From Dokdonia sp. Dokd-P16 (GTDB taxonomy: Bacteria; Bacteroidota; Bacteroidia; Flavobacteriales; Flavobacteriaceae): a stretch of 64,000 nt of DNA. Below are positions 111-61,777 of this stretch, one piece after another; the first letter of the stretch is position 1, and every line of letters begins with the position of its first letter. The stretch lies in NCBI RefSeq assembly GCF_003095655.1, contig NZ_CP029151.1, positions 1,487,001 to 1,551,000 of the forward strand, in the 5' to 3' direction. A program made the position numbers and the translations under genes. The notes below the pieces were generated by a model that saw only the letters and a list, made by a program, of their open reading frames with translations, was not told where the DNA came from and ran no database searches.

Positions 111-125
111 CGCTTTCGCGAAAGC
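111..125. repeat. Iterated palindrome copy (intergenic, after AraC stop)
   Basis: Copy of the palindrome with core TTTCGCGAAA at 114-123, starting 10 bp after the AraC stop codon. One of 24 exact core copies in the window. Confidence 0.9.
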
Positions 126-193
126 ATAAAAAAGACAATACCAGTATCATAAAGTCTTATAGATAACATGAGGATGATACGATTGATATACTG

Positions 194-201
194 TATTTTT
201 G
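194..201 (+). promoter_or_regulatory. -7 box of hemH promoter
   Basis: TATTTTTG matches the Bacteroidota -7 consensus TAnnTTTG and lies 21 bp before the hemH ATG. A -33 TTG at the usual spacing is not obvious. Confidence 0.5.
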
Positions 202-222
202 TTAAGGAAAAACTGAGAATAA

Positions 223-1263
223 ATGAACAAAGGAGTTTTAATGGTAAATCTGGGATCACCAGATAGTACAGATCCAAAAGACGTAAAAAAATATTTAGGC
301 GAGTTCTTAATGGACGAACGCGTAATTGATGTTCCTTATGCAGCACGCGCATTGCTAGTAAAAGGAATCATATTAAATACACGTCCTAAGAAGAGTGCAG
401 AGGCGTATAGTAAAATATGGTGGGATGAAGGATCACCGTTAATAGTCCTTACACAGCGGCTTCAGAAAAAAGTACAACAACATACAAAACTTCCTGTTGA
501 GATTGCGATGCGCTATGGTTCTCTATCTATCAAAGAAGGGCTTCAGAAATTGCATGATCAAGGAGTAGATGAGGTAATGTTATTACCGCTTTACCCTCAT
601 TATGCCATGGCAACTACAGAAACAATTACCGTGCTTGCAGAGGAGCTAAGAGCTGAGTTTTTCCCGAAGATGAAAATAACTGATGTAAAACCATTTTACA
701 AGGATGCAGATTACATCAAAGTATTAGGAGATTCAATTGCAGAGAGTCTTGAAGGTGTAGATTATGAGCATGTATTATTTTCATATCACGGGGTTCCTGA
801 GCGCCACATACGTAAAAGCGATGTAACAAAGGTACACTGTAAGATTGACGGATCTTGCTGTATGTCTGAGTCTGCAGCACATGAATTTTGCTATAGGCAC
901 CAGTGCTATGAAACTACCCGAATGGTAGGAGAATATCTAGGATGGGAGCCTTTAAAGTTTTCAACTAGTTTCCAGTCTCGTTTAGGTTTTGATCCATGGT
1001 TACAACCTTATACAGACCGTACTGTAGAGCGTATGGGGAAAGAAGGATTTAAGAAAATGGCCATTGCTACACCAGCATTTGTTTCAGACTGCCTTGAGAC
1101 GTTAGAAGAAATTGCGATGGAGGGTGAAGAGATTTTTCACGAAGCAGGAGGAAAGGATTTCCATACCATTCCTTGTATAAATGACCGAGATGACTGGGCT
1201 GCACTTATTGCCAAATGGGCAAATGAGTGGGCACTTGTAGAAAGTGGAAAAGCTATAGCTTAA
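223..1263 (+). CDS. hemH: Ferrochelatase
   Basis: Inserts Fe(II) into protoporphyrin IX, the last step of protoheme synthesis. The 346-residue protein begins GVLMVNLGSPDS, carries the catalytic-His motif SYHGVPERH (His189) and the C-terminal motif TPAFVSDCLETLEEI with the conserved acidic residues near 292-296. Between them is a cysteine-rich stretch (Cys206, 212, 213, 223, 228), which could hold an Fe-S cluster as in some other ferrochelatases; that is inference. ATG 223 is chosen because it restores the conserved N-terminus; ATG 241 would cut the first strand. It has its own -7 box. The preceding heme enzyme gene, hemJ, lies 5.7 kb downstream. Confidence 0.96.
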   Translation: MNKGVLMVNLGSPDSTDPKDVKKYLGEFLMDERVIDVPYAARALLVKGIILNTRPKKSAEAYSKIWWDEGSPLIVLTQRLQKKVQQHTKLPVEIAMRYGSLSIKEGLQKLHDQGVDEVMLLPLYPHYAMATTETITVLAEELRAEFFPKMKITDVKPFYKDADYIKVLGDSIAESLEGVDYEHVLFSYHGVPERHIRKSDVTKVHCKIDGSCCMSESAAHEFCYRHQCYETTRMVGEYLGWEPLKFSTSFQSRLGFDPWLQPYTDRTVERMGKEGFKKMAIATPAFVSDCLETLEEIAMEGEEIFHEAGGKDFHTIPCINDRDDWAALIAKWANEWALVESGKAIA

Positions 1264-1316
1264 TAGAAGCTATAATCATGATTTAAAGAATAGAAAGTGA
1301 ATTTTGCTTGATATAA

Positions 1317-3276: not shown

Positions 3277-3289
3277 CGCTTTCGCGAAA
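3277..3289. repeat. Iterated palindrome copy (after MATE stop)
   Basis: Core TTTCGCGAAA at 3280-3289, 11 bp after the MATE stop codon; the left outer arm ACGC is kept and the right arm is degraded. Confidence 0.85.
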
Positions 3290-3660: not shown

Positions 3661-3822
3661 GATTGCTTGCTTTACTATTTCCTTTATTGAGATGATAATA
3701 ATGACGTTAATTCTATAGAGATTATAAGGTGTTTGTTTTCGCAAAAGCGTTAAAAATTCATCCTTGCTTCTTACTTCATAGAGAATTGTGTAATTTTCTT
3801 AGCTAAAACCAACACAATCCAA

Positions 3823-6800
3823 ATGAAGACAAAATTATGCTACCTATTACTGGCGGTGTGCTCAGTATTATCTTTTGATACGTTTGCACAAACACCAGAC
3901 CCCTCTACTTACGAAGCTTTAGAATATAGACTCATTGGCCCTTTCCGAGGTGGTCGAAGTGCTGCCGTTACTGGAGTACCGGGACAACCAGATCTATTTT
4001 ATATGGGAAGTACTGGTGGTGGTGTGTGGCGCACTACAGATGGTGGTAAAGAATGGGAAAATATCTCAGATGGCTATTTTGGAGGAAGTATAGGAGCTGT
4101 TGAGGTTTCAAAAAGTGACCCAAACGTTATCTACGTAGGTGGTGGAGAGAAAACTCTCAGAGGAAACGTATCTTCTGGATACGGAATCTGGAAGTCTGAA
4201 GATGCAGGAAAAACATGGATACAGTCGGGTCTTAAGGAAAGCCGTCACGTGCCTAGAATACGTGTGCACCCTACAAATTCTGATATTGTATATGCTGGTG
4301 TTTTAGGTAATATCTATAGGCCTACGCAAGAGCGCGGTGTTTATAAAAGTACAGATGGAGGGAAGACTTGGAAAAGAACATTATTTTCAAATGCAGATAG
4401 TGGAGTTGTAGATTTAATTATAGACCCAAACAACCCACGTGTCTTATATGCAACAACTTGGAATGCCCGCAGAACACCTTATAGCTTGAGTTCTGGGGGA
4501 GATGGATCTGCTGTGTGGAAAAGTACAGACAGCGGTGAGACGTGGAAAGAGATTTCTACAAACGATGGTTTTGCCGAAGGTATACTAGGGATTATGGGAA
4601 TCACAGTTTCTCCAGCAAACAGTAACCGCCTGTATGCAATGGTAGAAAACCAAGAAGAGGGTGGTTTATACACATCTACAGATGCAGGAACAACTTGGAA
4701 AAAAATAAACGATGAGCGTAAATTGCGCCAGCGTGCTTGGTATTACACGCGTCTATATGCAGATACTAAGGATGAAAATACAGTGTATGTATTAAACGTG
4801 CGTTACCATAAATCTACAGATGGAGGTAAAACTTTTAGTACGCATAACGCACCGCACGGAGATCACCACGATTTATGGATTGCTCCAGAAGATCCTAACC
4901 GCATGATTATAGGTGATGATGGTGGCGCGCAAGTGTCTTATGATGGTGGACGCTCTTGGAGTACGTATATGAATCAGCCTACGGCTCAGTTTTACCGTGT
5001 GACTACGGATAATGCTTTTCCGTACAGAATTTATGTAGCACAACAAGATAATAGTACGATACGTATCCCACACAGAACAGAAGGTGGATCTATTGGAGAG
5101 ACAGACTGGGAGAGTACAGCAGGAGGAGAGTCGGCACATATTGCGGTAGATCCAGAAAATAATGAGATTGTGTATGGAGGTAGTTACGACGGATTTCTTA
5201 CGCGTGTAAACCATGAGAAAAACACGGTGCGTAGCGTATCTGTATGGCCAGACAATCCCATGGGTCATGGTGTGGAGGATATGAAATACCGCTTCCAGTG
5301 GAATTTCCCTATCATTTTCTCAAAGCATAATCCTAACAGGTTGTACACATTCTCACAAAGCGTGCACGTAAGTGAAAATGAAGGTCAAAGTTGGGAAGTG
5401 ATAAGTGGTGATCTTACGACTAACGATCCAGAAAAAATGAAATCTTCTGGAGGGCCTATCACACAAGATAATACCTCTGTAGAGTACTACTGTACCATAT
5501 TTGCAGCAGCAGAGTCTCCTATGAAGGAAGGACTGTTATATGTAGGTAGTGACGATGGTCTCGTACACGTAACTCGTAATGGAGGGCAATCTTGGGAAAA
5601 CATAACGCCTAAAGGGATGCCAAAAAATATGATGATAAACAGCGTAGAGCCATCTGCCTTTGAAGAAGGAACAGCTTACGTGGCCGGAACACGCTACAAA
5701 CTAGGTGATTTTGCTCCTTATTTATATAAAACTACAGACTACGGAAAGTCGTGGAAAAAGATTACAAACGGTATTCCAGCAGAGCATTTTACACGTGTAG
5801 TGCGTGAAGATCCTAAGCAAAAGGGGTTATTATACGCAGGTACAGAAACAGGAATGTACATCAGTTTTGACGATGGTAAAAACTGGAAATCGTTCCAACT
5901 CAATCTGCCTATCGTTCCTATTACAGACCTTACGATTAAGGATGATAACCTCATTGTAGCAACACAAGGACGTAGCCTTTGGATTATAGATGACCTTGGG
6001 ATGTTGCATCAGTCCGCTTTCGCGAAAGCGGGAACAAACAAATTATTTAAGCCAAAACCAACCTACAGAATGGGCGGAAACGGCGGAAAATCAAGCCTTA
6101 CAGCTGGAACTAACCATCCAGGTGGTGTGATGACATATTTCAACTTGAAAGAGTTTGACACTAAGAAAGATACCGTAACGCTATCTTATATGACGATGGC
6201 GGGCGATACGCTCAAGTCATATAGCACAGGAGCTAAGAAAAAAGGTGAAAAGCTAAAAGCTAAGAAAGGTGGAAATATGTTTGCATGGAATACGAGAACA
6301 GACGGCGCAGAAAAGCTTGATAAAATGATACTATGGTGGGCAAGTCTCGATGGGCCTAAAGCAGTTCCTGGGAATTATAAGGTGTCACTTAATGTAAATG
6401 GAGAGGTGCAAACAGAAACTTTTGAAGTAGTTGCAAATCCAAATGCAGAAGCTACAGTGGCAGATATGCAAAAGCAACATGACTTTATTTCTGATGTAAA
6501 TAAATCTGTAGACAGAGCACACCAAAGCATCAAAAAGATTAAGAAAATTAATAATCAACTCAAGTCGTTTACTACGCAATACGAAGACGATGAACGCACT
6601 GCAGATTTGCGTGAGAAAGCAAAAACAATGCAGGAAGAGTTTGGTAAGATTGAGAAAGAATTATATCAAACAAAGAACCGCTCAGGACAAGATCCACTTA
6701 ACTTTCCTATTAAATTAACAAACAAACTAGGGCATTTAAACAGTCTTGTGGGTATGGGAGATTTTGGACCTACAGATCAAGATATTGCTGTAAAAAATGA

Positions 6801-9074: not shown

Positions 9075-9845
9075 ATGTACAATAATATTCTTTCAACTAC
9101 AGAAAACGGTATTACTACAATCACAATCAATCGTCCGTCTAAGCTCAATGCTTTAAACAAAGAGACCATTGAAGAACTTCATAACGCTTTCGCGAAAGCG
9201 GAAGAAGATGCAACCGTACGCGTTGCAATCATAACCGGTTCTGGCGAAAAAGCTTTTGTAGCTGGTGCAGATATCTCCGAGTTTGCAAATTTCTCAGAAT
9301 CTGAAGGAGCAGAACTTGCTCGTAAAGGACAAGAAATTCTATTTGATTATGTAGCAGATATGGGAACTCCAGTTATCGCGGCTATTAACGGTTTTGCTCT
9401 AGGCGGCGGACTAGAACTTGCGATGGCGGCACATTTTAGAATTGCCAGTGATAATGCTCGTATGGGATTACCAGAAGTAGGCCTAGGAGTAATCCCTGGA
9501 TATGGTGGTACACAACGTTTACCACAACTAGTAGGTAAAGGACGTGCTATGGAGATGATTATGACTGCAGGAATGATAGATGCAAACACAGCATTAGAGT
9601 ACGGTCTTATCAATCATATCGTAGCACAAGAAGAATTGTTACCACTCGCAGAGAAGCTAGGAGGTAAAATCATGCGCAACTCACCTATGGCAATTGCAGC
9701 GGCAATTAATGCAGTAAATGCAGGTTATGAAGACGGTGTAGATGGTTATGATACAGAAATTGAAGAATTTGGTGGTTGTTTTGGAACCGACCAGTTTATA
9801 GAAGGAACAACGGCATTTCTCGAGAAAAGAAAGGCTGAGTTTTAA
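9075..9845 (+). CDS. Enoyl-CoA hydratase/isomerase family protein
   Basis: A 256-residue crotonase-fold enzyme that hydrates 2-enoyl-CoA in beta-oxidation or butyryl-CoA-type pathways. The oxyanion-hole strands (FVAGADISEF at 62-71, INGFALGGGLELA) and both catalytic glutamates, Glu114 in GGGLE and Glu134 in GLPEV, are present, so true hydratase activity is likely. ATG 9075 lies 63 bp after the kinase stop, probably in the same operon. An exact palindrome copy (core 9188-9197) encodes AFAKA at 38-42, on an N-terminal surface helix. A bidirectional terminator follows. Confidence 0.93.
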   Translation: MYNNILSTTENGITTITINRPSKLNALNKETIEELHNAFAKAEEDATVRVAIITGSGEKAFVAGADISEFANFSESEGAELARKGQEILFDYVADMGTPVIAAINGFALGGGLELAMAAHFRIASDNARMGLPEVGLGVIPGYGGTQRLPQLVGKGRAMEMIMTAGMIDANTALEYGLINHIVAQEELLPLAEKLGGKIMRNSPMAIAAAINAVNAGYEDGVDGYDTEIEEFGGCFGTDQFIEGTTAFLEKRKAEF

Positions 9846-11399: not shown

Positions 11400-11415
11400 A
11401 CGCTTTCGCGAAAGC
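11400..11415. repeat. Iterated palindrome copy (divergent gap)
   Basis: Core TTTCGCGAAA 11404-11413 between the divergent oxidoreductase and S9 peptidase genes, about 30 bp before the truncation point of the latter. Confidence 0.9.
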
Positions 11416-11508: not shown

Positions 11509-13545
11509 ATGAGGTATCTTGGGACTATTACAAATGATAACATCTCAGGAACCTACACACAGCTAGGTACTGACTATCCATTACAATTAATGAAAATAGA
11601 AAAAACACTCCCAGGAAATACAACATTACCATCATCAAATGAGTCGCTTGCAAAGCTCATTGCGCAAGAAGATGGGAATTTTAAATATAAAGTAGAAGAT
11701 TACTTCCAGACGCCAGAAGCCTATGCGTTTAAACTTTCACCAGATGGAAAGTACCTGTCGTACATGAAGCGTAGAGAAGATGGAAAAAGAGATTTATTTC
11801 TTAAAAATACGACTACTCAAACTGAAGTCAAGCTTGTAGAACAGCAGGAAGATTTAATACGTAGCTACTTCTGGGCAAGTGAAGATCGTATTGTGTACTC
11901 ACAAGATAAAGGAGGTAATGAAAACTACCATCTCTTTGGAGTAAATCTAGACGGTAGTGGTAATGAAGAGTTAACACCTTTTGATGAGGTACGCGTAGCT
12001 GTACTAGCCGTTCTTAAAGAAGATAAAGATCACGTTATCGTGCAGATGAACAAGGACAATCCTGCGCAGGAGGAGCCTTACAAGCTAAACATTAACACGG
12101 GTGCTATCGAGAAGCTGTACACCGTACATGAGGGTGATGCACCGGTAGCAGGATATGATTTTGATAAGTATGGAAATCTACGTGCAATCTCAAGAATCAT
12201 CAATGGGGTAGACATGGAGTTGCTTTACAATATTGATGATGAGTTTGTAAAAATAATGGAAGTCCCTTTTGGAGAAACTTTTGGTATCAGTCGTTTTGAT
12301 TATGCTTCAGATAATCCGGATGCGGCTTATGTGGTTTCTAATCTTGAGACAGATAAAATCGAAATTCAGCGTTATGATTTGCGAGCAAATAAAGTGCTGG
12401 CAACGATGTACAAAGATGAGACGTATGATGTGAGCGGAATTGCGCTTTCGCGAAAGCGTAACTATGAGGTTGATTATTTTTCGCACAATGGTGAGAAGGC
12501 GGTAATCGTACCTGTAAGTGACACCTACAAAAAGGTGCAAAAACGTTTGCAGAGAGATTTTGGAGATAAAGATTTTTATGTAGTAGGACGCACAGATGAC
12601 GAGCGTAAAATGATGGTGGTGGTAACGAGCGATCGCATTATAGGCGAGTATCACCTTTATGATGTTGAAGAGGATACGGTAACGTTACTGTATAAAATTC
12701 TTCCTCAACTTGAGGAGCAAGATATGGCTGCAATGACTCCTATCACTTTTAAGAGTCGTGATGGGATTACTTTACACGGGTATCTTACCATGCCTAATGG
12801 TGTGAAAGAAGATCAAAAAGTGCCTATGATTGTAAATCCGCATGGAGGTCCTCAAGGAATACGTGATAGCTGGGGTTTTAACCCAGAAGCACAATTATTT
12901 GCTAGCCGAGGCTATGCTACACTAGCCGTAAACTTTAGAATTTCTGGTGGATATGGTAAAGAGTTTTACACCTCTGGTTTTGGACAAATAGGTCGCAAAG
13001 CGATGGATGATGTAGAAGATGGTGTTGATTATGCAGTTTCTCTCGGACAGATTGACAAAGATAAGGTTGCTATTTATGGTGCAAGTCACGGTGGATATGC
13101 CGTACTACGTGGAATGACCAAAACACCAGAAAAATATGCTTGTGGTGTAGATTATGTAGGTGTGAGTAACTTGCATACTTTTATGGAAACTATCCCGGCA
13201 TACTGGGAGAAGTATCGTGATATGTTACATACCATCTGGTACAATCCTAACAAGCCAGAGGAGAAGAAAATCATGGATGAGATTTCTCCAGCCTTACATG
13301 TAGATAAGATTGTAAAGCCATTATTTGTGGTGCAAGGAGCAAATGATCCTCGAGTAAATATAGACGAGGCAGACCAAATTGTAGCGCAGTTGAGAACTCG
13401 CGGCGTTGAGGTGCCATATATGGTGAAGTATGATGAGGGTCACGGTTTTGGCAAAGAAGAAAACACGTTGGAGTTGTACAAAGCTATGATGGGCTTTTTT
13501 GCAGAGCACTTAAAACAAGAAGAAGTTGTTGCTCTTAAAAAGTAG
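11509..13545 (+). CDS. S9-family prolyl oligopeptidase-like peptidase, N-terminus missing
   Basis: A serine peptidase with beta-propeller (about 60-400) and alpha/beta-hydrolase domain (about 410-678). The catalytic triad is intact: Ser526 in GASHGGY, Asp613 in GANDP, His645 in DEGHGF. There is no signal peptide, unlike usual family members. The frame upstream of ATG 11509 stays open to a TAA at 11443 and encodes TLEENKISITSAKLK, which joins smoothly to MRYLGTITNDNISGTYTQ: the end of a small beta-domain that in Bacteroidota precedes secreted alpha/beta hydrolases. The gene therefore appears to have lost its signal peptide and half that domain. A palindrome copy (12446-12455) encodes ALSRKRN. 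The product may be cytosolic or the gene decaying. Confidence 0.82.
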   Translation: MRYLGTITNDNISGTYTQLGTDYPLQLMKIEKTLPGNTTLPSSNESLAKLIAQEDGNFKYKVEDYFQTPEAYAFKLSPDGKYLSYMKRREDGKRDLFLKNTTTQTEVKLVEQQEDLIRSYFWASEDRIVYSQDKGGNENYHLFGVNLDGSGNEELTPFDEVRVAVLAVLKEDKDHVIVQMNKDNPAQEEPYKLNINTGAIEKLYTVHEGDAPVAGYDFDKYGNLRAISRIINGVDMELLYNIDDEFVKIMEVPFGETFGISRFDYASDNPDAAYVVSNLETDKIEIQRYDLRANKVLATMYKDETYDVSGIALSRKRNYEVDYFSHNGEKAVIVPVSDTYKKVQKRLQRDFGDKDFYVVGRTDDERKMMVVVTSDRIIGEYHLYDVEEDTVTLLYKILPQLEEQDMAAMTPITFKSRDGITLHGYLTMPNGVKEDQKVPMIVNPHGGPQGIRDSWGFNPEAQLFASRGYATLAVNFRISGGYGKEFYTSGFGQIGRKAMDDVEDGVDYAVSLGQIDKDKVAIYGASHGGYAVLRGMTKTPEKYACGVDYVGVSNLHTFMETIPAYWEKYRDMLHTIWYNPNKPEEKKIMDEISPALHVDKIVKPLFVVQGANDPRVNIDEADQIVAQLRTRGVEVPYMVKYDEGHGFGKEENTLELYKAMMGFFAEHLKQEEVVALKK

Positions 13546-13556: not shown

Positions 13557-13569
13557 CGCTTTCGCGAAA
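13557..13569. repeat. Iterated palindrome copy (after S9 stop)
   Basis: Core 13560-13569, 14 bp after the stop codon and just before the terminator; right outer arm degraded. Confidence 0.85.
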
Positions 13570-14854: not shown

Positions 14855-14870
14855 AATTTTCGCGAAAGCA
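14855..14870. repeat. Iterated palindrome copy
   Basis: Core 14858-14867, left arm degraded, between the terminator of the bacilliredoxin gene and the next gene on the minus strand. Confidence 0.8.
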
Positions 14871-22742: not shown

Positions 22743-22787
22743 TGTTATGAAAATGGTAAAATGTTAGTTACGCTTTCGCGAAAGCGT
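22743..22787 (-). promoter_or_regulatory. Shared upstream element, copy 1 (flavoprotein gene)
   Basis: TGTTATGAAAATGGTAAAA (22743-22761), eight variable bases, then the palindrome ACGCTTTCGCGAAAGCG (core 22774-22783). The same pattern with the same 31-bp offset lies before the DoxX gene. It ends 44 bp before the flavoprotein start codon. Confidence 0.7.
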
Positions 22788-23288: not shown

Positions 23289-23332
23289 TGTTATGAAAAT
23301 GGTAAAAAGCGAATAACGCTTTCGCGAAAGCT
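23289..23332 (-). promoter_or_regulatory. Shared upstream element, copy 2 (DoxX gene)
   Basis: TGTTATGAAAATGGTAAAA (23289-23307), eight different bases, then ACGCTTTCGCGAAAGC (core 23320-23329). It ends 33 bp before the DoxX start codon. See copy 1. Confidence 0.7.
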
Positions 23333-29775: not shown

Positions 29776-29791
29776 CGCTTTTGCGAAAGCT
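29776..29791. repeat. Degenerate iterated palindrome copy
   Basis: ACGCTTTTGCGAAAGC, one mismatch in the core (29779-29788), just after the DUF2490 stop. Confidence 0.7.
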
Positions 29792-31054: not shown

Positions 31055-31071
31055 ACGCTTTCGCGAAAGCG
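31055..31071. repeat. Iterated palindrome copy (between sbtA and next gene)
   Basis: Perfect ACGCTTTCGCGAAAGCGT, core 31059-31068, in the 48-bp gap after the sbtA stop. Confidence 0.92.
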
Positions 31072-33674: not shown

Positions 33675-34013
33675 TTGGTACGCTTTCGCGAAAGCATAAT
33701 ACGTGTAAAACGTTGTCTTTACTGAAGTGACGTGCAAATGTCGGGTTAAATACTGCTCAAGAAATGAAACAAATCATAAATGAGCCATACTATTGCAGTG
33801 TAGAACTTCTTGTATATGTAATACCTAATAACAAGAAAGATGAGCTTTACAATTCGTTTCTATCGCATACGTATTTCAATAAAAAATAAAACCGTAGTTT
33901 AGAACTATGCTTTGATTTTTATATTTCATCTATACGCGCTATAATTCAAATTGTTTAAAACCCCTCTTCCTTATCATCAGGTATAATGCGCATCATTACA
34001 AGGCAAAACATTT
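33675..34013. other. 339-bp intergenic stretch
   Basis: Contains a palindrome copy (ACGCTTTCGCGAAAGC, core 33684-33693) right after the LysR stop. A 41-codon frame (ATG 33764 to TAA 33887-33889, beginning MKQIINEPYYCSVELLVY) is the only sizable one; it could be a small gene or a relic, and nothing decides. The rest is AT-rich sequence without a clear promoter for the next gene. Confidence 0.5.
33681..33695. repeat. Iterated palindrome copy (after LysR stop)
   Basis: Core 33684-33693, 9 bp after the LysR stop codon. Confidence 0.9.
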
Positions 34014-45057: not shown

Positions 45058-47544
45058 CTAGAGTCCCCTTCGGGGGTTGGGGGATTTCATCAACTTCGCG
45101 GTCATTTTCTTGATCCTATCGGCTAGTTTTTCGCTACTCAATTTTTCGCGTAAGCGGTCCGTAATTATTGGAAAAGATAAAGGCGTAGGTTGCTCGCAAT
45201 CCATCCATACAATTTCTTGCGTCTCTATGCGCTCAAGGGCTTGTTGTAAACGGCCTTCTTCAAGTTGGTGCTCAAAGGTTTCTGTAAATGCCTGCTGAAA
45301 CAGTAGATTCTCTGCCTCATAATCACGGAACACATCAAAAAACAACTGACTACTACTTTGCAAGTGTTTCTGTTTGATTTGCTTGTTTGGAAAACCAGTA
45401 AAAACAAGTCCAGAAATCACCGCAATATCTCTAAATTTTCGCCTGGCCATCTCTGTAGCATTGAGACTATTCTGCAAGTCATCGTGCATATATGCCGTCG
45501 TAAATAGGTCGTTATCTAGTAGCTGCTGTATGTCTATAGGTTGGTCTGAAAGCAGCTCAAAACCATAGTCATTAAAGGCGAGAGAGAAGGTGATAGGATC
45601 TAGCAAACTAAGACGGTACCCAAGTAAACTTCCCATTGCTTCGTGCACAAAACGACCTTCAAAAGGATAAAATACGTGATGATAGCCATCGCGCGTTTTA
45701 AAAGTCTCAATGAGCAGTTGCTCATCACTCGGGATGATGCTCTCTACCTTTTGCTGTCTAAAAATATGCTCTAGCGCATTAATCTCAAGAGACCGCTTTC
45801 GCGAAAGCGAATTCCCTGTATAAAGTTCCTCCCTTAACAGCTGCGACATCTGGCTACTTAAAGTGAGCCTACCGCCCATCCACGAAGGGACTTTATTAGT
45901 TTTCTTAGAGCTGTTGCGCACGTGCACTTCCATATTTTTAATACGGATAAATTCTAGGTTGCGACCAGCAAAAGTAAACACATCACCACGCGTTAACTTG
46001 CTTATGAAAAACTCCTCTATGGTACCAATGTAACCCCCTTTTTGATATTTGACTACAAGATTTGCATCGCTTACAATCGTACCTATTTGCAGGCGATGAC
46101 GCATTGCCACCATACGAGAGTTGACTTTAAATCTGCCGTCCTCAAGAATCTCCACCTTCTTATACTCATCATAAGCTTGTAGGGATTGCGCACCCATCGT
46201 CATAAAATTGAGACACCATTCCCATTGCTCTTTTGCCATTACTTGAAAGCAAAACGTAGTCTGTATCTCTGGCCAGATATCTTCGGGTAAAAATCCGTCA
46301 GATACTGCTAGTGTCACGAGATATTGAATCAGTACGTCAAAACTATTGAGGTACGGAATTCTATCTTCTACCGTGTTTTCCTTTACAGCGCGTTGCAAGG
46401 CAGAAGCTTCTACCAGCTCAATGGCGTGTGTAGGCAAAAAGTAAATCACACTCTCCTTACCAGGGCTGTGACCAGATCGCCCAGCACGTTGTAAAAAGCG
46501 AGCGACACCCTTCGGGCCGCCTATTTGGATGATGGTTTCAACAGGTGCAAAGTCTACTCCGAGATCAAGGCTAGAAGTACAAACTACCGCCTTGAGAGAG
46601 CCGTTGCGAATGGCGCCCTCAACCCACGTGCGCGTCTCTTTATTGATACTCCCGTGATGCATTGCAATTTCACCAGCATACTCAGGATGTGCCGCAAGAA
46701 TGCGCTGAAACCAGATTTCACACTGGCTGCGCGTGTTCGTAAACAGTAAGGTCGTCTTGCTGTTGTTGATAATGGGTACGACGTACTCAAGCAAGTGCAA
46801 TCCCAAATGACCACGCCAAGGAAAGGTTTCCATCTCGTCTGGAATGATTGACTTAACAGTAATTTTTTTGTTGATGTTTGCTTTGATAATTACGCTTTCG
46901 CGAAAAGCGTCACTCTCATAGCCCAGCAGTACTTCTCGAGCTTGCTCAAGATTTCCAATCGTTGCCGAAATACCCCAGAGACGCATAGCTGAAGCGACAG
47001 TTTTCAATCGGCTCAAGGCGAGTTCCATTTGTACACCGCGCTTAGTCCCTAGAAGTTCGTGCCACTCATCTACTATTACGGCAGAGCAGTCTTTAAAGAC
47101 TTTCTCATACCCTTTTGAGGCAATTAAAAGCATCAAGCTCTCGGGTGTGGTGATGAGCAAGTCTGGCATAGAACGTTTTTGCTTGGCACGTTCAGATTGT
47201 GGTGTATCTCCATTGCGTATTCCTACTGTCATTTGTGTGCCGAGATCTTGTGTGATGCGAGAAGCCGAAAGCTCAATCTCATTAGAAAGCGAGCGCAGCG
47301 GAGTAATCCAAATAGCCTTTAGTCCTTTTTTATGTTTGGTCTTGTAATCAGGGTTTTGCTTTATGTAATTGAGAACTACCGGAAACCAAAGTGCATACGT
47401 TTTACCACTACCCGTAGGTGCATTAAGCAATCCATTTTTACCCGAAAGAAACGCCTTCCACGTTTGTTTTTGAAATGGAAAAGGTTTCCAGTCTTGCGAC
47501 TGGAACCAGTTATTTGCGATATCGAGTAGTTCTTTTTGAGTCAT
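45058..47544 (-). CDS. Ligase-associated DNA damage response Lhr-type DEXH helicase
   Basis: An 828-residue superfamily 2 helicase. Walker A PTGSGKT (43-49), DEWH box in VIVDEWHELLG (about 163), SAT motif GISATIGN, motif VI QRAGRSGHSPG, then the Lhr core winged-helix and beta-barrel regions. It acts with the adjacent ligase and exonuclease and with PdeM in DNA repair. Palindrome copies at 45797-45806 (SLSRKRS) and 46896-46905 (AFRES). The last residues KSPNPRRGL are encoded by a dispersed GC-rich repeat (45061-45087) directly before the stop, so the native C-terminus was probably altered. Confidence 0.94.
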   Translation of the reverse strand: MTQKELLDIANNWFQSQDWKPFPFQKQTWKAFLSGKNGLLNAPTGSGKTYALWFPVVLNYIKQNPDYKTKHKKGLKAIWITPLRSLSNEIELSASRITQDLGTQMTVGIRNGDTPQSERAKQKRSMPDLLITTPESLMLLIASKGYEKVFKDCSAVIVDEWHELLGTKRGVQMELALSRLKTVASAMRLWGISATIGNLEQAREVLLGYESDAFRESVIIKANINKKITVKSIIPDEMETFPWRGHLGLHLLEYVVPIINNSKTTLLFTNTRSQCEIWFQRILAAHPEYAGEIAMHHGSINKETRTWVEGAIRNGSLKAVVCTSSLDLGVDFAPVETIIQIGGPKGVARFLQRAGRSGHSPGKESVIYFLPTHAIELVEASALQRAVKENTVEDRIPYLNSFDVLIQYLVTLAVSDGFLPEDIWPEIQTTFCFQVMAKEQWEWCLNFMTMGAQSLQAYDEYKKVEILEDGRFKVNSRMVAMRHRLQIGTIVSDANLVVKYQKGGYIGTIEEFFISKLTRGDVFTFAGRNLEFIRIKNMEVHVRNSSKKTNKVPSWMGGRLTLSSQMSQLLREELYTGNSLSRKRSLEINALEHIFRQQKVESIIPSDEQLLIETFKTRDGYHHVFYPFEGRFVHEAMGSLLGYRLSLLDPITFSLAFNDYGFELLSDQPIDIQQLLDNDLFTTAYMHDDLQNSLNATEMARRKFRDIAVISGLVFTGFPNKQIKQKHLQSSSQLFFDVFRDYEAENLLFQQAFTETFEHQLEEGRLQQALERIETQEIVWMDCEQPTPLSFPIITDRLREKLSSEKLADRIKKMTAKLMKSPNPRRGL
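45061..45087. repeat. Dispersed GC-rich repeat fragment in the helicase 3' end
   Basis: CCCCTTCGGGGGTTGGGGGA, of a kind that recurs at gene ends in flavobacteria. On the minus strand it supplies the last nine codons and abuts the stop of the helicase gene. Confidence 0.65.
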
Positions 47545-48117: not shown

Positions 48118-49743
48118 TTATTTTGTGGGCGGGAGAGATTCCTTCGCTGCGCTCGGAATCATCCCTTTTAAATCCTCTAGTGTATTTGCATCTTCTATTT
48201 TTTTGTCGTGTCGCCAGCGTAGCATTCTAGGGAAACGAGTGGCAATACCACTCTTATGTCTTTTTGATAAAGCTATTCCCTCAAAAGCAATCTCAAACAC
48301 GTGATGAGGTGTTACAGATCTAACTGGCCCAAAACGCTCTAGTGTGTTTTTTTTAATCCAGTTATCTACTTTTCTAAACTCGGCGTCTGTAAGTCCAGAG
48401 TAGGCTTTTGCAAAAGTAACGAGCTCGGTTTTATCTTCATTCCATAAACCGAAAGTGTAATCTGTAAATAAATTACTTCGTCTACCGTGGCCACGCATTG
48501 CATAGGTGAGCACAGCGTCAATAGTGAGTGGATCTACTTTCCATTTCCACCAGTCGCCTTTTTTACGACCTACGCGATAGGGGCTGTCTTTGCGCTTTAT
48601 CATTAATCCTTCAGAGCGCATCTCTCTACTACGGTCTCTTTCTTGTGCCATTGCTTCCCAACTATCAAACTCCATTGTTTCAGAAATACCGATAGGCAGT
48701 TCTTTATCTGTGATATTGCGATATAACGATTCAAGGATTGTTCTCCTTTTCGCGAAAGCGGTTTCACGCAAGTCTTTTCCTTCCCATTCTAGAATATCAT
48801 AAGCTTTGATAATTACAGGCACTTCTTTGAGCATTTTCTTGCTCACGGTTTTCCTTCCGATACGTGCTTGCAAATCATTAAATGTACCAATCTGCCCATC
48901 ATAAAAAGGCAGTAACTCACCATCTATGACGGTTCCGTCTGGTATGTGCTCTTTGAGAATCTCTAGTTCTGGGTATTTATCTGTCACTAGCTCTTCACCG
49001 CGACTCCAGATAAAAATATCGCCATTACGAAAGATGGTTTGTGAGCGTATACCATCCCACTTATGTTCGGCAAGAAAGTCTGTCACATCACCCAGCGCCG
49101 AAGGTTCATCTTCAACTGCATAGGCAAGGTAAAATGGATAGGGTCTTGAAAACTCTTGGCTTGCATCTTCCTCGATTACCAAATCATGGAAGGTAACCAT
49201 CTGTGGTTTCCAGTCTCCCATAAGTTTATAAGCTAGTACATCTTCTTCTATGTCTGTCGCTTGTGATAATGCGCGTGTCATCAACTTTTGACTCACGCCT
49301 ATTCTAAAGCCTCCTGTAATTAGTTTTGTAAATACAAAACGTTCATAATAGTTGAGGTTTGCCCAATTGTCAAAGAGGTATTCCTTTTTCTCTTCATCAG
49401 TTTTTTTCCTTAGAGCAATCATTTCTTCTAAAAACTGGGTAAGTGACTTCTCAGAAGATGCTGTTGCTGCCGGAACCACAAGTGCAATCGTTTCTGCAAG
49501 GTCACCCACGATGTGATAGCTCTCTTCAAAAAGCCATAATGGAATGTTAGATAGTTCGCTCGCCCATTCTCTAAGTAAGGTTGTGTTTACAGGCCTTGGA
49601 GGGCGACGGTGTGATAGGATGGCAATCGTCCACACCTTATCTTTATCTGGCGCCTCGGTAAAATAATGAGCAAGTGCTTTTACCTTCTCATTAGTTTTAT
49701 TTGTAGAATCGAGTGTTTTTATAAGTGCTGCAAATAGTTTCAT
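48118..49743 (-). CDS. ATP-dependent DNA ligase of the ligase-associated repair operon
   Basis: A 541-residue ligase. N-terminal DNA-binding domain (about 1-200), adenylation domain with Lys228 in EHKWDGIR, downstream motifs IDGELLPF, SEGLMIKRKDSPY and WWKWKVDPLTIDAV, then the OB-fold to about 520. It seals nicks using ATP and lacks LigD-like polymerase and phosphoesterase domains; those functions are in the neighbours. The ATG overlaps the exonuclease stop by 4 bp (ATGA). A palindrome core (48748-48757) encodes FAKR. The last residues (IPSAAKESLPPTK) come from a dispersed repeat at 48131-48162. Confidence 0.94.
   Translation of the reverse strand: MKLFAALIKTLDSTNKTNEKVKALAHYFTEAPDKDKVWTIAILSHRRPPRPVNTTLLREWASELSNIPLWLFEESYHIVGDLAETIALVVPAATASSEKSLTQFLEEMIALRKKTDEEKKEYLFDNWANLNYYERFVFTKLITGGFRIGVSQKLMTRALSQATDIEEDVLAYKLMGDWKPQMVTFHDLVIEEDASQEFSRPYPFYLAYAVEDEPSALGDVTDFLAEHKWDGIRSQTIFRNGDIFIWSRGEELVTDKYPELEILKEHIPDGTVIDGELLPFYDGQIGTFNDLQARIGRKTVSKKMLKEVPVIIKAYDILEWEGKDLRETAFAKRRTILESLYRNITDKELPIGISETMEFDSWEAMAQERDRSREMRSEGLMIKRKDSPYRVGRKKGDWWKWKVDPLTIDAVLTYAMRGHGRRSNLFTDYTFGLWNEDKTELVTFAKAYSGLTDAEFRKVDNWIKKNTLERFGPVRSVTPHHVFEIAFEGIALSKRHKSGIATRFPRMLRWRHDKKIEDANTLEDLKGMIPSAAKESLPPTK
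48131..48162. repeat. Dispersed repeat forming the ligase C-terminus
   Basis: GAGATTCCTTCGCTGCGCTC followed by GGAATCATCC, a widespread bacterial intergenic element type. It encodes about ten terminal residues of the ligase on the minus strand. Confidence 0.6.
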
Positions 49744-50786
49744 ATGCTAGTTTCCTCCTCCTCTTTTTTTGCATCCCCTTCGGCTAATTCGCCTTCATAT
49801 TGTGTTTCTTCCGTGCGAGCATCATAACCTATGCTACGTAAATATTTGGAGAATATATCTGTGTATCCGTGAGTACAAATGATTTTTTCGGCACCTGTAG
49901 CTTCTATACTTTGTAGTAAACTAGGCCAGTCACAGTGATCACTTAGCACAAAGCCTTTGTCAATCGCTCTGCGTCTTCTTGCTCCTCTAAAAGCCATCCA
50001 GCCGCTAGCGCTTGCGGTTACGTATGGCACCATCTTGCGTATCCACGTACTGCCGTGAGTAGCTGGTGGTGCTAGCACGATACTTCCTTTAAAATCTTCT
50101 TTTTTGGTATCTCTAGTTATTAATTCTGTTGCTGGCATATCGATCATAGGGCGCAGTACTTCAGTCATTTTTTCGATAGCGCCGTGGGTGAGTATCTTTC
50201 CTATAGTCGGGTCAAGGTGTTTCAATAATCGTTGTGCTTTACCTAAGCTGTAAGCAAAAAGTACAGAGCACTTTCCTTCGGCTTTGTTTTGCGCCCACCA
50301 GGTGTTTATATCGTGCATTACTTCGGCTTGTGGTGTCCACTTGAATGCTGGAAGTCCAAAGGTGCATTCGGTTATAAAAGTGTCGCATTTTACGGGTTCG
50401 TAAGGTTGAGAGATACCATCTACTTCGGTTTTATAATCGCCTGTAAATACCCACACTTCGCCTTTGTGTTCTACACGTATCTGACTAGAGCCTGGAATGT
50501 GACCAGCGGGATGAAAGGTGAATTTTACATTGTTGATATTTACGCTTTCGCGAAAGCGTACCCCAGAAACATTGATATCTCCCAACCTATGAGAAATGAT
50601 AGGAACGTTACTCTCGTGAGTGATATACTGTTTATGTCCCCAGCGACTGTGGTCTGCGTGGCCGTGTGTGATGAGGGCTTTATCTACAGGTTTCCATGGG
50701 TCTAGATAGACCTTTGCGGGTGGGCAATAAATACCCTTGTCTGTAAATTCTAAAAGTGGTTTTTTCAAGCTATTTTTCTTTTTCAT
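49740..50786 (-). CDS. Ligase-associated DNA damage response MBL exonuclease
   Basis: A 348-residue metallo-beta-lactamase/beta-CASP nuclease related to SNM1/Artemis. Metal motif THGHADHSRWG (41-46 HGHADH), later AGHIPGSSQI, FTGDYKTE, VLSDHCDWPSL and CTHGYTD. It trims DNA ends before ligation. First gene of the operon, 4 bp overlap with the ligase gene. The Glu/Lys-rich tail EGDAKKEEEETSI is extra. A perfect palindrome copy (core 50547-50556) encodes VRFRESV. Confidence 0.94.
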   Translation of the reverse strand: MKKKNSLKKPLLEFTDKGIYCPPAKVYLDPWKPVDKALITHGHADHSRWGHKQYITHESNVPIISHRLGDINVSGVRFRESVNINNVKFTFHPAGHIPGSSQIRVEHKGEVWVFTGDYKTEVDGISQPYEPVKCDTFITECTFGLPAFKWTPQAEVMHDINTWWAQNKAEGKCSVLFAYSLGKAQRLLKHLDPTIGKILTHGAIEKMTEVLRPMIDMPATELITRDTKKEDFKGSIVLAPPATHGSTWIRKMVPYVTASASGWMAFRGARRRRAIDKGFVLSDHCDWPSLLQSIEATGAEKIICTHGYTDIFSKYLRSIGYDARTEETQYEGELAEGDAKKEEEETSI

Positions 50787-58644: not shown

Positions 58645-58666
58645 TCAATCCGTTATATTTAATACA

Positions 58667-58778: not shown

Positions 58779-59411
58779 ATGATGCGCTCTTTTTTCGGTA
58801 GATTATTTAGAAAAGTAACGATAGAAGAGGAAGCAATAGACCCCATGAAAAAATTTCTTATCGTTGGTTTAGGAAACATAGGTCCTAAGTACACAGAAAC
58901 TAGGCATAATATAGGATTTAAGGTGGTAGACGCTTTCGCGAAAGCGCAAGAAACCACTTTCGAAACTGAAAAACTAGGTGACATCGCGCGTACCAAAATA
59001 AAAGGTAAAACCGTTATCTTATTAAAGCCTAATACCTTTATGAATTTAAGCGGTAAGGCTATACGATACTGGTTGCAACAAGAAAAAATCCCTGTAGAAA
59101 ATCTTCTAGTAATTACAGATGATTTGAACTTGGAATTCGGAACCATAAGAGTGAAAACCAAAGGTTCTGCTGGAGGACATAATGGACTAAAGGACACGCA
59201 GGCTCAACTTAATACTTCTGCATATAATAGATTTCGTTTTGGCATAAGTGATGCGTTTTCAACAGGACGTCAGGTAGATTATGTGCTAGGAGAATGGACG
59301 CCAGAGGAGCAAGCTAGTCTTCCGGAGCGACTGGATATGAGTTGTGAGGTAATCACTTCTTTTGTGAGTGGAGGAATTAATAATACAATGAACGCGTACA
59401 ACGGTAAATAA
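58779..59411 (+). CDS. pth: Peptidyl-tRNA hydrolase
   Basis: A 210-residue enzyme that frees peptides from peptidyl-tRNA that has dropped off ribosomes. GLGNIGPKY (Asn binding), catalytic His in TRHNIGF, PNTFMNLSG, TDDLNLEFG and GSAGGHNGLK. The first 22 residues (MMRSFFGRLFRKVTIEEE) are an extension usual in flavobacterial homologs; MKKFLIVGLGN at ATG 58845 would be the minimal start. A palindrome core (58934-58943) encodes AFAKA. ribF starts 2 bp after the stop. Confidence 0.95.
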   Translation: MMRSFFGRLFRKVTIEEEAIDPMKKFLIVGLGNIGPKYTETRHNIGFKVVDAFAKAQETTFETEKLGDIARTKIKGKTVILLKPNTFMNLSGKAIRYWLQQEKIPVENLLVITDDLNLEFGTIRVKTKGSAGGHNGLKDTQAQLNTSAYNRFRFGISDAFSTGRQVDYVLGEWTPEEQASLPERLDMSCEVITSFVSGGINNTMNAYNGK

Positions 59412-59413
59412 TC

Positions 59414-60343
59414 TTGAAAACTCACAATAGCGCACATACATTTAGCTCAGAAAAAGGAACTGTCGTTACGATAGGTACCTTTGACGGAGTACATTTAGGG
59501 CATCGGCAGATTATTAATAGGCTTAACGAAAGTGCGCGCGCAAATGACTGGGAGTCGTGCGTACTTACCTTTTTTCCGCACCCTAGGATGGTGTTACAAA
59601 AAGACACTTCGCTCAAGCTTATAAACACCATAGATGAGCGAGCGCAGTTGCTTGAAGGTCTAGGTCTAGATCACCTCGTGATTCATCCTTTTACCTTAGA
59701 TTTCTCAAGGTATCATGCGGAGACTTTTGTTGAGGAGATTCTTGTAAATTCTCTTAATGCAAAGAAAGTAATTATAGGATACGATCACCGTTTTGGACGC
59801 AATCGTAATGCAAATATTGAGGATCTCAAACGTTTTGGAGAACAACTAGGTTTTGAGGTGGAAGAGATATCAAAGCAAGAACTAGAAGATGTAGCTGTAA
59901 GTTCTACAAAAGTGCGTAAATCACTAGAGGTAGGAGACGTTGCACTCGCAAATAACTATCTCGATCAAGCATTTATGCTTACGGGAACCGTTGTAAAAGG
60001 CAGGAGTCTAGGTAGAACGATAGGGTATCCTACCGCAAATCTAGACATAGCCGAAGATTATAAACTAATACCCGCGCAAGGCGTTTATGTTGTGCAGTCT
60101 CGTATTAATGGAGGCGTTGTCTACGGAATGATGAATATAGGCACAAACCCAACAGTAGGAGGAAGTGCGCAAACTATTGAAACCTATTTCTTTGATTTTA
60201 GTAAGGACTTATATGGACAAGAGCTAGAGATACAATTGCTAGACCGTATACGTGATGAGAAAACCTTTGCGAGTATAGATGAGCTTGTAAAAGCGATGAA
60301 AGAGGATGAGAAGTATGCACGCGATTATATAAATAAGCTCTAA
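59414..60343 (+). CDS. ribF: Bifunctional riboflavin kinase / FAD synthetase
   Basis: A 309-residue enzyme that makes FMN then FAD. N-terminal nucleotidyltransferase with GTFDGVHLGHRQII (21-34) and STKVRKSLEVGD; C-terminal kinase domain with KGRSLGRTIGYPTANL (about 195) and GMMNIGTNPTVGG. Start is TTG 59414, placed 2 bp after the pth stop, implying coupling. No FMN riboswitch is present, as expected inside an operon. Confidence 0.96.
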   Translation: MKTHNSAHTFSSEKGTVVTIGTFDGVHLGHRQIINRLNESARANDWESCVLTFFPHPRMVLQKDTSLKLINTIDERAQLLEGLGLDHLVIHPFTLDFSRYHAETFVEEILVNSLNAKKVIIGYDHRFGRNRNANIEDLKRFGEQLGFEVEEISKQELEDVAVSSTKVRKSLEVGDVALANNYLDQAFMLTGTVVKGRSLGRTIGYPTANLDIAEDYKLIPAQGVYVVQSRINGGVVYGMMNIGTNPTVGGSAQTIETYFFDFSKDLYGQELEIQLLDRIRDEKTFASIDELVKAMKEDEKYARDYINKL

Positions 60344-60352
60344 TCAAATAAG

Positions 60353-61777
60353 ATGTCACTTAATAAGCTACTCTTTACTAGAATAGATAATAACGCGCTC
60401 ATTGTGTTTCGTGTTTTTTTTGGTTTTCTTATTACTTGTGAGGCTTGGGGAGCACTTGCTACCGGGTGGGTGCGACGTATTCTCGTAACACCAGAATTTA
60501 CTTTTAACTTTATAGGTTTTGACTTTTTACAAACATTTCCAGGACCTGGGCCACAAATGTATGCGTGGTTTGGTTTAATGGGAGTCTTTGGGGTGATGGT
60601 AATGCTTGGTTTTAAATATCGTGTAGCGATTATTGGCTATGCAATCATGTGGAGTACCGTGTATTTCATGCAAAAAACCGCTTATAATAATCACTATTAT
60701 CTATTGATGCTGCTTTTGTGGATTATGGCTATACTTCCTGCAAACGCTGCGTTTTCTCTTGATGCACGCTTTCGCGAAAGCGTAAGAAATATAAGTATGC
60801 CACGCTGGGTAACCTTGTTTATCATTCTCCAACTGTGGATTGTGTACACCTACGCGTCTATTGCCAAAATATATCCAGACTGGCTAGATGCGACCGTACC
60901 AGAAATATTAATGCGTGGTAAGAAAGATTACTGGCTCGTAGGTAGCGTGCTTCAAAAGGACTGGACACACTGGATTATTTCTTATGTAGGAATCGCATTT
61001 GATGGCTTGATCATCCCATTATTGTTGTGGAAACGTACGCGTACTTGGGCATTTTTTATATCTATATTCTTTCATCTTTTTAACTCTTTTGTGTTCCAGA
61101 TTGGGATTTTCCCTTATATGTCACTGGCATTTACGGTATTCTTTTTTGAGCCGAGAACCATTCATAATTTGTTTCTTAAACGCTGGAAACCTTTTTACGA
61201 GCGCAGCGATACTAACTCTTACCATCAAGAAATTACAACTGATTCATTTAGTGGCTCACCTCAAACTTTAATCATCCCAAAATATAAAACAGCAATGCTC
61301 ACTGTATTTGCGGTGTATTTTGTAGTGCAAATTGGCCTGCCACTGCGACAGCATTTTATACAAGATAATGTATTATGGTCTGAGGAAGGACATCGCTTGA
61401 GTTGGCGTATGATGCTCCGCTCTAAAGGTGGAACAGTAACGTTTACGGTAGAAGATAAGGCAACCGGAAAGCGAACTACACTAGACCATAAAGAGTACCT
61501 CACAAAAAACCAACAGCGCAACATCAGATCAAAACCAGATGTGATATGGCAATTTGCACAATACATAAAACAGCTCAAAAAGACAGAAGGGCAAGATGTA
61601 GCGGTCTACGTAAAATGTAGAATTCGCATAAACGGCCGTAAATCTCAGGAGCTCATAGATCCAGGAGTGGATCTGGCGAGTGTAGACTGGAACTGGTTTT
61701 CTCACAATCCTTGGGTGCTAGATAGCGATGGTTATCTGGATGATAAGGGGTTGTTTTCTAGTTTTGGAGGTGACTAA
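60353..61777 (+). CDS. HTTM (vitamin K-dependent gamma-carboxylase-like) membrane protein
   Basis: A 474-residue protein with an N-terminal HTTM domain of about eight helices (1-290), including AYNNHYYLLMLLLWIMAIL and the YTYASIAKIYPDWL segment, where the paired His and Lys resemble active-site positions of gamma-carboxylases. A C-terminal soluble beta domain (about 330-474, LSWRMMLRSKGGTVTFTV) follows. Bacterial HTTM proteins are thought to act on quinone-linked carboxylation but none is defined here. It starts 9 bp after ribF and ends with a hairpin. A palindrome core (60770-60779) encodes ARFRESVR in a loop. Confidence 0.88.
   Translation: MSLNKLLFTRIDNNALIVFRVFFGFLITCEAWGALATGWVRRILVTPEFTFNFIGFDFLQTFPGPGPQMYAWFGLMGVFGVMVMLGFKYRVAIIGYAIMWSTVYFMQKTAYNNHYYLLMLLLWIMAILPANAAFSLDARFRESVRNISMPRWVTLFIILQLWIVYTYASIAKIYPDWLDATVPEILMRGKKDYWLVGSVLQKDWTHWIISYVGIAFDGLIIPLLLWKRTRTWAFFISIFFHLFNSFVFQIGIFPYMSLAFTVFFFEPRTIHNLFLKRWKPFYERSDTNSYHQEITTDSFSGSPQTLIIPKYKTAMLTVFAVYFVVQIGLPLRQHFIQDNVLWSEEGHRLSWRMMLRSKGGTVTFTVEDKATGKRTTLDHKEYLTKNQQRNIRSKPDVIWQFAQYIKQLKKTEGQDVAVYVKCRIRINGRKSQELIDPGVDLASVDWNWFSHNPWVLDSDGYLDDKGLFSSFGGD

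What the first reader, a model, noticed from the sequence alone, without database searches (positions are those of the whole stretch)
111..60780. Highly iterated palindrome GCTTTCGCGAAAGC across the window
The core TTTCGCGAAA occurs exactly 24 times (starts 114, 3280, 6018, 9188, 11404, 12446, 13560, 14858, 17926, 22774, 23320, 25755, 27822, 30474, 31059, 33684, 36579, 38681, 45797, 46896, 48748, 50547, 58934, 60770), with at least four one-mismatch copies (near 3737, 29779, 42436, 45144). My base-composition estimate for a random 10-mer of this makeup is about 0.1 in 64 kb. Most copies extend to ACGCTTTCGCGAAAGCG. Spacing is about 2 kb. It behaves like cyanobacterial HIP1: too frequent for a regulator, and selected or actively maintained. 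Possible roles are methylation, repair, nucleoid or uptake signal.
Basis: partly seen in the sequence, partly recalled or inferred. Interest (0 to 1): 0.75.

Follow-up and report, generated by a model that had tools for sequence, protein, structure and literature searches.

The report
Thousand-copy DNA palindrome in Dokdonia genomes
A marine bacterium and its whole genus carry about a thousand copies of one exact DNA palindrome, spread through the genome and strongly preserved, perhaps as a self-recognition tag for DNA uptake or handling, and I found no description of it in print.

Summary
The window holds 24 exact TTTCGCGAAA (shuffles: mean 0.10); the complete genome (Dokdonia, 3.62 Mb) holds 1,074 against 10 for the reversed pattern. 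All 18 genomes held of the genus have 481-1,195; of 397 family genomes only Dokdonia, genus g11 and G230 exceed 34.

The unit is longer than the core: about TTACGCTTTCGCGAAAGCGTAA, with arms to about 25 bp from the centre, T/G-rich on the 5' side and A/C-rich on the 3' side of each strand; the arms do not pair. Copies lie in and between genes, change by substitution and keep position: 340/434 sites against 175/2,751 control 10-mers in Dokdonia pairs of 70-80% identity. Gaps under 1 kb are rare. Phages, several clearly temperate, carry them with arms.

HIP1-like methylation is not supported: this genome has no match to PF00145, PF01555 or PF02086. The pattern resembles DNA uptake signals, but known ones are not palindromes (recalled), and 9 of 14 carriers lack a pilus-type ATPase over cut-off. 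No function is demonstrated; no cognate protein was found.

The parts
114..123 (.). palindrome copy, intergenic, GC..GC flanks
3280..3289 (.). palindrome copy, intergenic, right GC lost
6018..6027 (.). palindrome copy in gene 3856-6930
9188..9197 (.). palindrome copy in gene 9075-9845 (encodes AFAKA)
11404..11413 (.). palindrome copy, intergenic (divergent genes)
12446..12455 (.). palindrome copy in gene 11509-13545
13560..13569 (.). palindrome copy, intergenic (convergent genes), right GC lost
14858..14867 (.). palindrome copy, intergenic, left GC lost
17926..17935 (.). palindrome copy in gene 17080-18228; kept in G006, G004, G011
22774..22783 (.). palindrome copy, intergenic; kept in G004, one base changed in G006
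23320..23329 (.). palindrome copy, intergenic; kept in G006
25755..25764 (.). palindrome copy in gene 24946-28359 (mfd-like by eye); kept in G006 and G004; in G011 the DNA site is gone but FAK is kept
27822..27831 (.). palindrome copy in gene 24946-28359; kept in G006, G004, G011
30474..30483 (.). palindrome copy in gene 29816-30700; kept in G006, not in G004 or G011
31059..31068 (.). palindrome copy, intergenic; kept in G006 and G004
33684..33693 (.). palindrome copy, intergenic; kept in G004 although its flanks have diverged
36579..36588 (.). palindrome copy in gene 36105-37004; kept in G004
38681..38690 (.). palindrome copy in gene 37346-39433 (metG-like by eye)
45797..45806 (.). palindrome copy in gene 45058-47544 (helicase-like by eye)
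46896..46905 (.). palindrome copy in gene 45058-47544, right GC lost
48748..48757 (.). palindrome copy in gene 48118-49743 (ligase-like by eye), left GC lost
50546..50555 (.). palindrome copy in gene 49740-50786 (reader wrote 50547)
58934..58943 (.). palindrome copy in gene 58782-59411
60770..60779 (.). palindrome copy in gene 60353-61777
29779..29788 (.). one-mismatch copy TTTTGCGAAA with GC flanks kept; intact in G006 and G004
42436..42445 (.). one-mismatch copy TTTCGCCAAA with GC flanks kept

Best explanation
Each copy is one recognition site of about 50 bp with two-fold symmetry: an invariant palindromic centre plus two arms whose strand composition, not exact sequence, matters. A sequence-specific DNA-binding protein (inferred, not found), probably a dimer, reads it. 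The system most likely works as a self-identity signal for DNA uptake: during natural transformation by machinery unlike the classical pilus type (as reported for Riemerella; that Dokdonia has such machinery is inferred), fragments carrying the site are favoured, so site-bearing alleles replace site-less ones across the genome. That would account for site change by substitution, high positional retention, saturation at about one per 3.4 kb with few gaps under 1 kb, presence in temperate phages and transferred islands, and absence from one integron-like cassette block. Shown: the site, its arms, conservation, spacing, taxonomic distribution, phage carriage. Inferred: the protein, uptake, biased replacement.
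For: Genome-wide 1,074 versus control 10; 18 of 18 Dokdonia genomes. The excess falls 105-fold (own), 219-fold (g11) and 39-fold (G230) from zero to one mismatch; Haemophilus and Neisseria uptake sequences fall 92- and 82-fold (PMC1939737, passages). Conserved positions: 340/434 versus control 175/2,751. Gaps under 1 kb: 9 versus 22.6 expected and 3 versus 17.5 in G016. In genes, 43 of 67 FAK tripeptides are spelt TTCGCGAAA, 1.1 expected. Phage loci with two or more copies carry the arms; 4 of 10 contig groups show an integrase or transposase, as uptake signals do in Pasteurellaceae temperate phages (PMC6776037, passages). ComEC family in 14 of 14 carriers tested. Riemerella transforms through ComEC, DprA, ComF, RecA and four proteins with no homology to well-characterised transformation machinery (PMC8459023, abstract and two sections).
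Against: The uptake signals I know of are not palindromes (recalled). The T2SSE/PilB-type ATPase family is over cut-off in only 5 of 14 carriers and not in this complete genome (all 26 genomes have a match below cut-off or better, the weak ones mostly in large ORFs that I take for other ATPases). ComEC is equally present in 12 of 12 non-carriers, so it does not discriminate. No receptor was found. I saw no report of competence in Dokdonia, but only 30 of 1,271 papers were listed. The CV of the first 100 own gaps (0.86) lies within the random range 0.82-1.21, a 23-kb empty gap included. Virulent phages, whose carriage of the site would speak against uptake, were not identified or tested. In G230 there is hardly any intergenic preference (218 against 155 per Mb) and one-mismatch forms are 51 against 68 exact.
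Confidence: 0.38

Rival explanations
1. Nucleoid or chromosome-maintenance site: an abundant lineage-specific protein binds about a thousand spread-out sites and organises or marks self DNA; phages and islands resident in these cells adapt to it.
For: Few gaps under 1 kb; 19 spread 20-kb segments have variance/mean 0.37 with the cassette segment L159 left out, 0.67 with it; two-fold symmetric footprint of about 50 bp; the same site in coding and non-coding DNA.
Against: Copy number is far above the nucleoid-occlusion or terminus sites I know of (recalled). No protein identified. The same 14 bp in separate genera needs transfer of the protein or many losses.
Confidence: 0.22
2. Chi-like signal: a helicase-nuclease or recombination loader is switched at the site; the T/G-rich 5' arm on each strand would be the stretch onto which RecA is loaded.
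For: Density of about 300/Mb is of the order of Chi in E. coli (recalled); T/G-rich 5' flanks with a weak three-base rhythm would fit RecA preferences (recalled); phages carry it.
Against: Known Chi sites are 5-8 bases, polar and strand-biased (recalled); this one is a palindrome with about 50 bp of signal. RecBCD/AddAB of carriers were not examined.
Confidence: 0.18
3. HIP1-type element: methylation by an orphan methylase and methyl-directed mismatch repair create and keep the palindrome.
For: Highly iterated palindrome whose inner TCGCGA is not in excess by itself (7 outside the motif in the window, 7.0-7.3 expected; 40 in 623 kb, 48-54 expected), as for CGATCG in HIP1 (PMC4390886, part of section 3.4 read).
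Against: Own genome has 0 matches to PF00145, PF01555 and PF02086; none of these families is present in all 14 carriers. One-mismatch forms are 2.3-fold over expectation in own, 0.94-fold in g11, 3.8-fold in G230. Type I and gamma-class adenine MTases were not tested.
Confidence: 0.07
4. Mobile or structural repeat: a REP/MITE-like insertion or a terminator hairpin.
For: The palindrome forms a modest single-strand hairpin in two of three copies folded; intergenic density is about five times the coding density in own and g11.
Against: Gains and losses seen as substitutions at orthologous positions; 74 of 132 own copies are coding; the arms do not pair; no T-run 3' of the palindrome in intergenic copies (T 0.26-0.34 over +3..+20, background 0.34).
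Confidence: 0.03

Closest known systems
DNA uptake sequences (USS of Pasteurellaceae, DUS of Neisseriaceae)
   Same: High copy number; excess drops 39- to 219-fold from 0 to 1 mismatch (82-92 published); few close pairs of sites; one tolerated reading frame preferred in genes; flanking signal beyond the core (recalled for USS); genus-level difference in the outer consensus; accumulation in temperate phages
   Different: Palindrome; arms with strand (keto/amino) asymmetry; pilus-type ATPase not over cut-off in 9 of 14 carriers; Bacteroidota; uptake not demonstrated
HIP1 of cyanobacteria
   Same: Highly iterated palindrome genome-wide, inner hexamer not in excess by itself
   Different: Other sequence; longer symmetric footprint; no MTase of the three families tested in own genome; one-off forms scarce in own and g11; about 1 per 3.4 kb against about 1 per kb
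Chi recombination hot-spots
   Same: Similar density (recalled), T/G-rich 5' flank
   Different: 14-18 bp palindrome instead of a short polar sequence
Palindromic nucleoid sites (Noc NBS, SlmA, MatP matS)
   Same: Palindromic dimer-type site
   Different: About a thousand copies around the chromosome, against tens (recalled)

Membership tests
HIP1 | Palindrome greatly overrepresented across the genome | tested here: met
   1,074 versus 10 for the control
HIP1 | Sequence GCGATCGC in cyanobacteria | tested here: not met
   TTTCGCGAAA in Flavobacteriaceae
HIP1 | Cognate orphan DNA methyltransferase | tested here: not met
   Own genome: PF00145 0, PF01555 0, PF02086 0 matches; other MTase classes not tested
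HIP1 | One-off forms common | tested here: not met
   Own: 51 one-mismatch against 175 exact in 623 kb, 21.9 expected; g11 11 against 77; G230 is intermediate, 51 against 68
Uptake sequence (USS/DUS) | Excess concentrated in the exact form, tens of fold lower at one mismatch | tested here: met
   105-fold own, 219-fold g11, 39-fold G230; published 92 and 82
Uptake sequence (USS/DUS) | Spacing more even than random (recalled for USS) | tested here: met
   Gaps under 1 kb 9 against 22.6 and 3 against 17.5; CV below random in G016 (0.67) but not in the first 100 own sites (0.86)
Uptake sequence (USS/DUS) | Accumulates in long-resident temperate phages | tested here: met
   temperate marker in 4 of 10 contig groups, the others not searched systematically; contigs were selected for holding the motif
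Uptake sequence (USS/DUS) | Scarcer in recently acquired DNA | tested here: inconclusive
   0 copies in one 20-kb integron-like segment L159; single case
Uptake sequence (USS/DUS) | Type IV pilus machinery with a pilin receptor | tested here: not met
   PF00437 over cut-off in 5 of 14 carriers, not in the own genome; pilins not searched
Uptake sequence (USS/DUS) | ComEC channel | tested here: met
   14 of 14 carriers, also 12 of 12 non-carriers
Uptake sequence (USS/DUS) | Preferential uptake of site-bearing DNA | not testable with these tools
   needs experiment
Chi | Short polar, strand-biased sequence | tested here: not met
   Palindrome, signal to about 25 bp from the centre
Chi | Cognate RecBCD/AddAB | not tested
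REP/MITE repeat | Extragenic copies that spread by insertion | tested here: not met
   74 of 132 copies coding; substitution-type changes

The most novel reading that the evidence does not exclude
The first sequence-specific DNA uptake (self-recognition) signal of the Bacteroidota: a palindromic, roughly 50-bp, arm-polarised site read by a receptor that is not of the type IV pilus kind, that has moved between Flavobacteriaceae genera and rewrote each recipient genome with several hundred to about 1,200 copies.
Probability: 0.33. Interest if true: 0.88.

Novelty: new variant of a known kind. Interest (0 to 1): 0.75.

Why it matters
Genome-wide iterated signals are known in few lineages and the known ones (USS/DUS, Chi, HIP1) each opened a field. 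Here is one in marine bacteria of a genus studied for proteorhodopsin (PMC4974333), with a symmetric two-armed architecture I could not match to any described signal and no methylase of the tested families to explain it. A culturable strain sequenced with PacBio, D. donghaensis DSW-1, makes it directly testable. If it is an uptake signal it explains how these flavobacteria exchange DNA selectively and gives a ready marker for tracing phages and islands to their hosts.

Tried and rejected
Rejected: chance; concentration in a mobile element; terminator or hairpin function (arms unpaired, no T-run 3'; folding); a C5, N4/N6 beta or D12 methylase of the families tested in this genome; a protein-level cause (43 of 67 FAK spelt TTCGCGAAA against 1.1 expected). 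A strongly hypermutating flank is not supported: in close pairs arm divergence is 0.084-0.103 against 0.060-0.086 further out; in distant pairs two bins are higher (+3..6 0.333, +10..15 0.274, other bins beyond +6 0.190-0.244), so a mild excess is not excluded. Led nowhere: text searches for the motif (10 papers hold the core, judged by title and start of abstract only; none hold CGCTTTCGCGAAAG), Dokdonia with palindrome (listing), Krokinobacter with overrepresented motif (none), HIP and Bacteroidetes (20 of 52,850 listed), Dokdonia and competence (30 of 1,271 listed). The comEC neighbourhood in own genome (L169) was only listed, no families searched. Not found: the cognate protein; whole-genome searches ended (12 of 12) before a carrier-only gene could be sought. 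Unexplained: A recurs at +5, +8, +11, +14 past the core in intergenic arms.
Full report
OBSERVATION. TTTCGCGAAA occurs 24 times in the window; 100 dinucleotide-preserving shuffles gave a mean of 0.10 and at most 2. One start is off by one (50546). The window lies in a complete 3,623,447-bp chromosome that holds 1,074 copies against 10 of the reversed pattern. A genome of the same genus has a 3,293,944-bp contig, exactly the published length of Dokdonia donghaensis DSW-1, 38.2% G+C (PMC4974333, abstract and most of the announcement seen), so I take the genus to be Dokdonia; this rests on that length match. Gene names in the window are by eye from translations.

DISTRIBUTION. Of 59 genomes searched, own included, all 18 Dokdonia genomes (all held of the genus) have 481-1,195 copies, one genome of another genus (g11) 595, the remaining 40 at most 12. 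Of 397 family genomes, six have 559-1,107 (two Dokdonia, three g11, G230) and the next highest has 34. With the 14-mer GCTTTCGCGAAAGC, of 247 genomes drawn across the phylum the own genome has 808, 15 others 1-4, 231 none; that draw contained no other known carrier. In a MetG tree (54 rows, one gene, midpoint root) the eight Dokdonia rows are one clade (100/99), g11 is a separate deep lineage (100/100) and G230 groups with non-carriers of g164 (91/88, below the starred level). So the same palindrome was gained more than once, moved between lineages, or was lost many times.

ANATOMY. In a 464-kb own sample (132 copies) the flanks read TTACGC-core-GCGTAA with graded conservation: G 0.90, C 0.91, G 0.79, T 0.61 at +0 to +3. 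Beyond that, to about +19, the 3' side of either strand is poor in G (about 0.03-0.14) and rich in A and C, then returns towards background; total A+T is hardly changed. This holds in coding and intergenic copies and in three lineages, more weakly in G230. Left and right arms do not covary. The position just outside GCG differs by genus (T in Dokdonia, A/G in g11), like a dialect. In Dokdonia a half-site without GC has usually changed both bases (22 of 27 own, 18 of 21 other Dokdonia); this is weaker in G230 (12 of 18) and not seen in g11 (1 of 4).

PLACEMENT. Of 132 own copies 74 are coding and 58 intergenic: 183 against 985 per Mb; g11 126 against 691; G230 155 against 218, hardly any preference. 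In own genes the frame TTC GCG AAA dominates (43 of 74). FAK is enriched (67 against 32.1) and 43 of 67 are spelt TTCGCGAAA (1.1 expected); AFAKA occurs 37 times against 0.15 expected. Gene calls come from a simple caller of my own. Close pairs are rare: gaps under 1 kb number 9 against 22.6 expected in the first 100 own sites, though their CV (0.86) is within the random range, and 3 against 17.5 in the 67 listed sites of G016, CV 0.67, below the random range.

EVOLUTION. In Dokdonia pairs of 70-80% DNA identity 340 of 434 site 10-mers are identical in the partner, against 175 of 2,751 control 10-mers 35-80 bp away; at 80-90% 120/134 against 270/937; at 90-100% 62/66 against 302/443. These counts come from one syntenic region of about 20 kb (less in two genomes) in 14 genomes; pairs overlap and each is read both ways, so they are not independent, and only aligned stretches are seen. 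Of 49 Dokdonia site alignments to non-carriers G368/G184, 0 show the motif. Aligned examples show gain or loss by substitution, e.g. at window 25755, where G011 keeps FAK but not the site; other sites fall in alignment gaps and cannot be judged. Substitution in the arms is near background in close pairs, with two higher bins in distant pairs; I read this as weak selection on composition rather than a local mutation process, without proof.

MOBILE DNA. The 21 loci with two or more copies (38 distinct contexts) show the arm signature; the 99 with one copy (86 contexts), which I take to be mostly chance, do not. PHROGs identifies head, portal and sheath proteins, and integrases or transposases in 4 of 10 contig groups (20 proteins scanned). 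The grouping covers 19 contigs; three further multi-copy loci (L243, L254, L258) were left out of it, and the other six groups were not systematically searched for such markers. In non-carriers G200, G029 and G141 copies cluster in segments; Pfam scans of seven G200 and G029 proteins found efflux, copper-oxidase and P-type ATPase domains, which suggests transfer from carriers. The 23-kb gap in the own map is an integron-like block (a tyrosine recombinase beside small cassette-like genes) without copies.

FUNCTION TESTS, 14 carriers and 12 non-carriers. PF00145 has no match in 8 of 14 carriers, PF01555 is over cut-off in 2 of 14, PF02086 has no match in 6 of 14, and the own genome lacks all three. 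The PF00437 ATPase is over cut-off in 5 of 14 carriers and 2 of 12 non-carriers; the other 19 genomes have only weak matches. ComEC is in 26 of 26. Natural transformation with proteins unlike known machinery is reported for Riemerella (PMC8459023, abstract and two sections; one of the four proteins is predicted fimbrial there), and uptake signals build up in temperate phages of Pasteurellaceae, with large, likely lytic ones poor in them (PMC6776037, passages). The excess drops 105-fold from exact to one-mismatch forms in own (219 in g11, 39 in G230), like Haemophilus and Neisseria (92, 82; PMC1939737, passages).

CONCLUSION. A preserved, genus-wide recognition site; uptake signal most likely (0.38), nucleoid (0.22) and Chi-like (0.18) roles open, HIP1-type methylation unlikely (0.07). 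I saw no description of it in print in these searches of an open-access library: 10 papers with the core, titles and starts of abstracts only; no paper with CGCTTTCGCGAAAG; 20 of 52,850 listed; 5, 0 and 8 papers; of these PMC5217627, PMC6776037, PMC1939737 and PMC4390886 were looked into by passages, the last also in part of one section.

Noticed in passing
L159 (G000:C1:90001-110000): Tyrosine recombinase (PF00589) beside eleven small same-strand genes with wide gaps and low GC, one with an erythromycin-esterase domain: looks like a chromosomal integron cassette array; attC sites not examined. It lacks the palindrome.
   Followed up: partly
L349-L350 (G200), L352-L353 (G029), L354 (G141): Clusters of the palindrome in otherwise non-carrier genomes; scanned genes in G200 and G029 are RND efflux, outer-membrane efflux, multicopper oxidase and P-type ATPase. 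Perhaps a metal-resistance island moved from a carrier; the motif may work as a tracer of transfer.
   Followed up: partly
L351 (G183:C1:15001-35000): Three copies of the core inside a different, longer repeat (TTTCGCGAAAGACAGACA...), without the GC flanks and just after gene ends; not the same element.
   Followed up: no
L238, L221, L308, L265: Phages with a transposase family hit in L238, L221 and L308 (L265 shares DNA with the L238 contig), Mu-like by my reading, of presumed flavobacterial hosts, carrying the palindrome at 145-237 per Mb of the pieces held; the motif could help assign hosts to metagenomic phages.
   Followed up: partly
G184, G368 (genus g164): 34 and 24 copies of the core against reversed-pattern counts of 21 and 18; slightly high relatives of G230, perhaps a remnant or a beginning.
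   Followed up: no
intergenic arms, +5 to +14 past the core: A tends to recur every third base outside genes, strongest in g11.
   Followed up: partly
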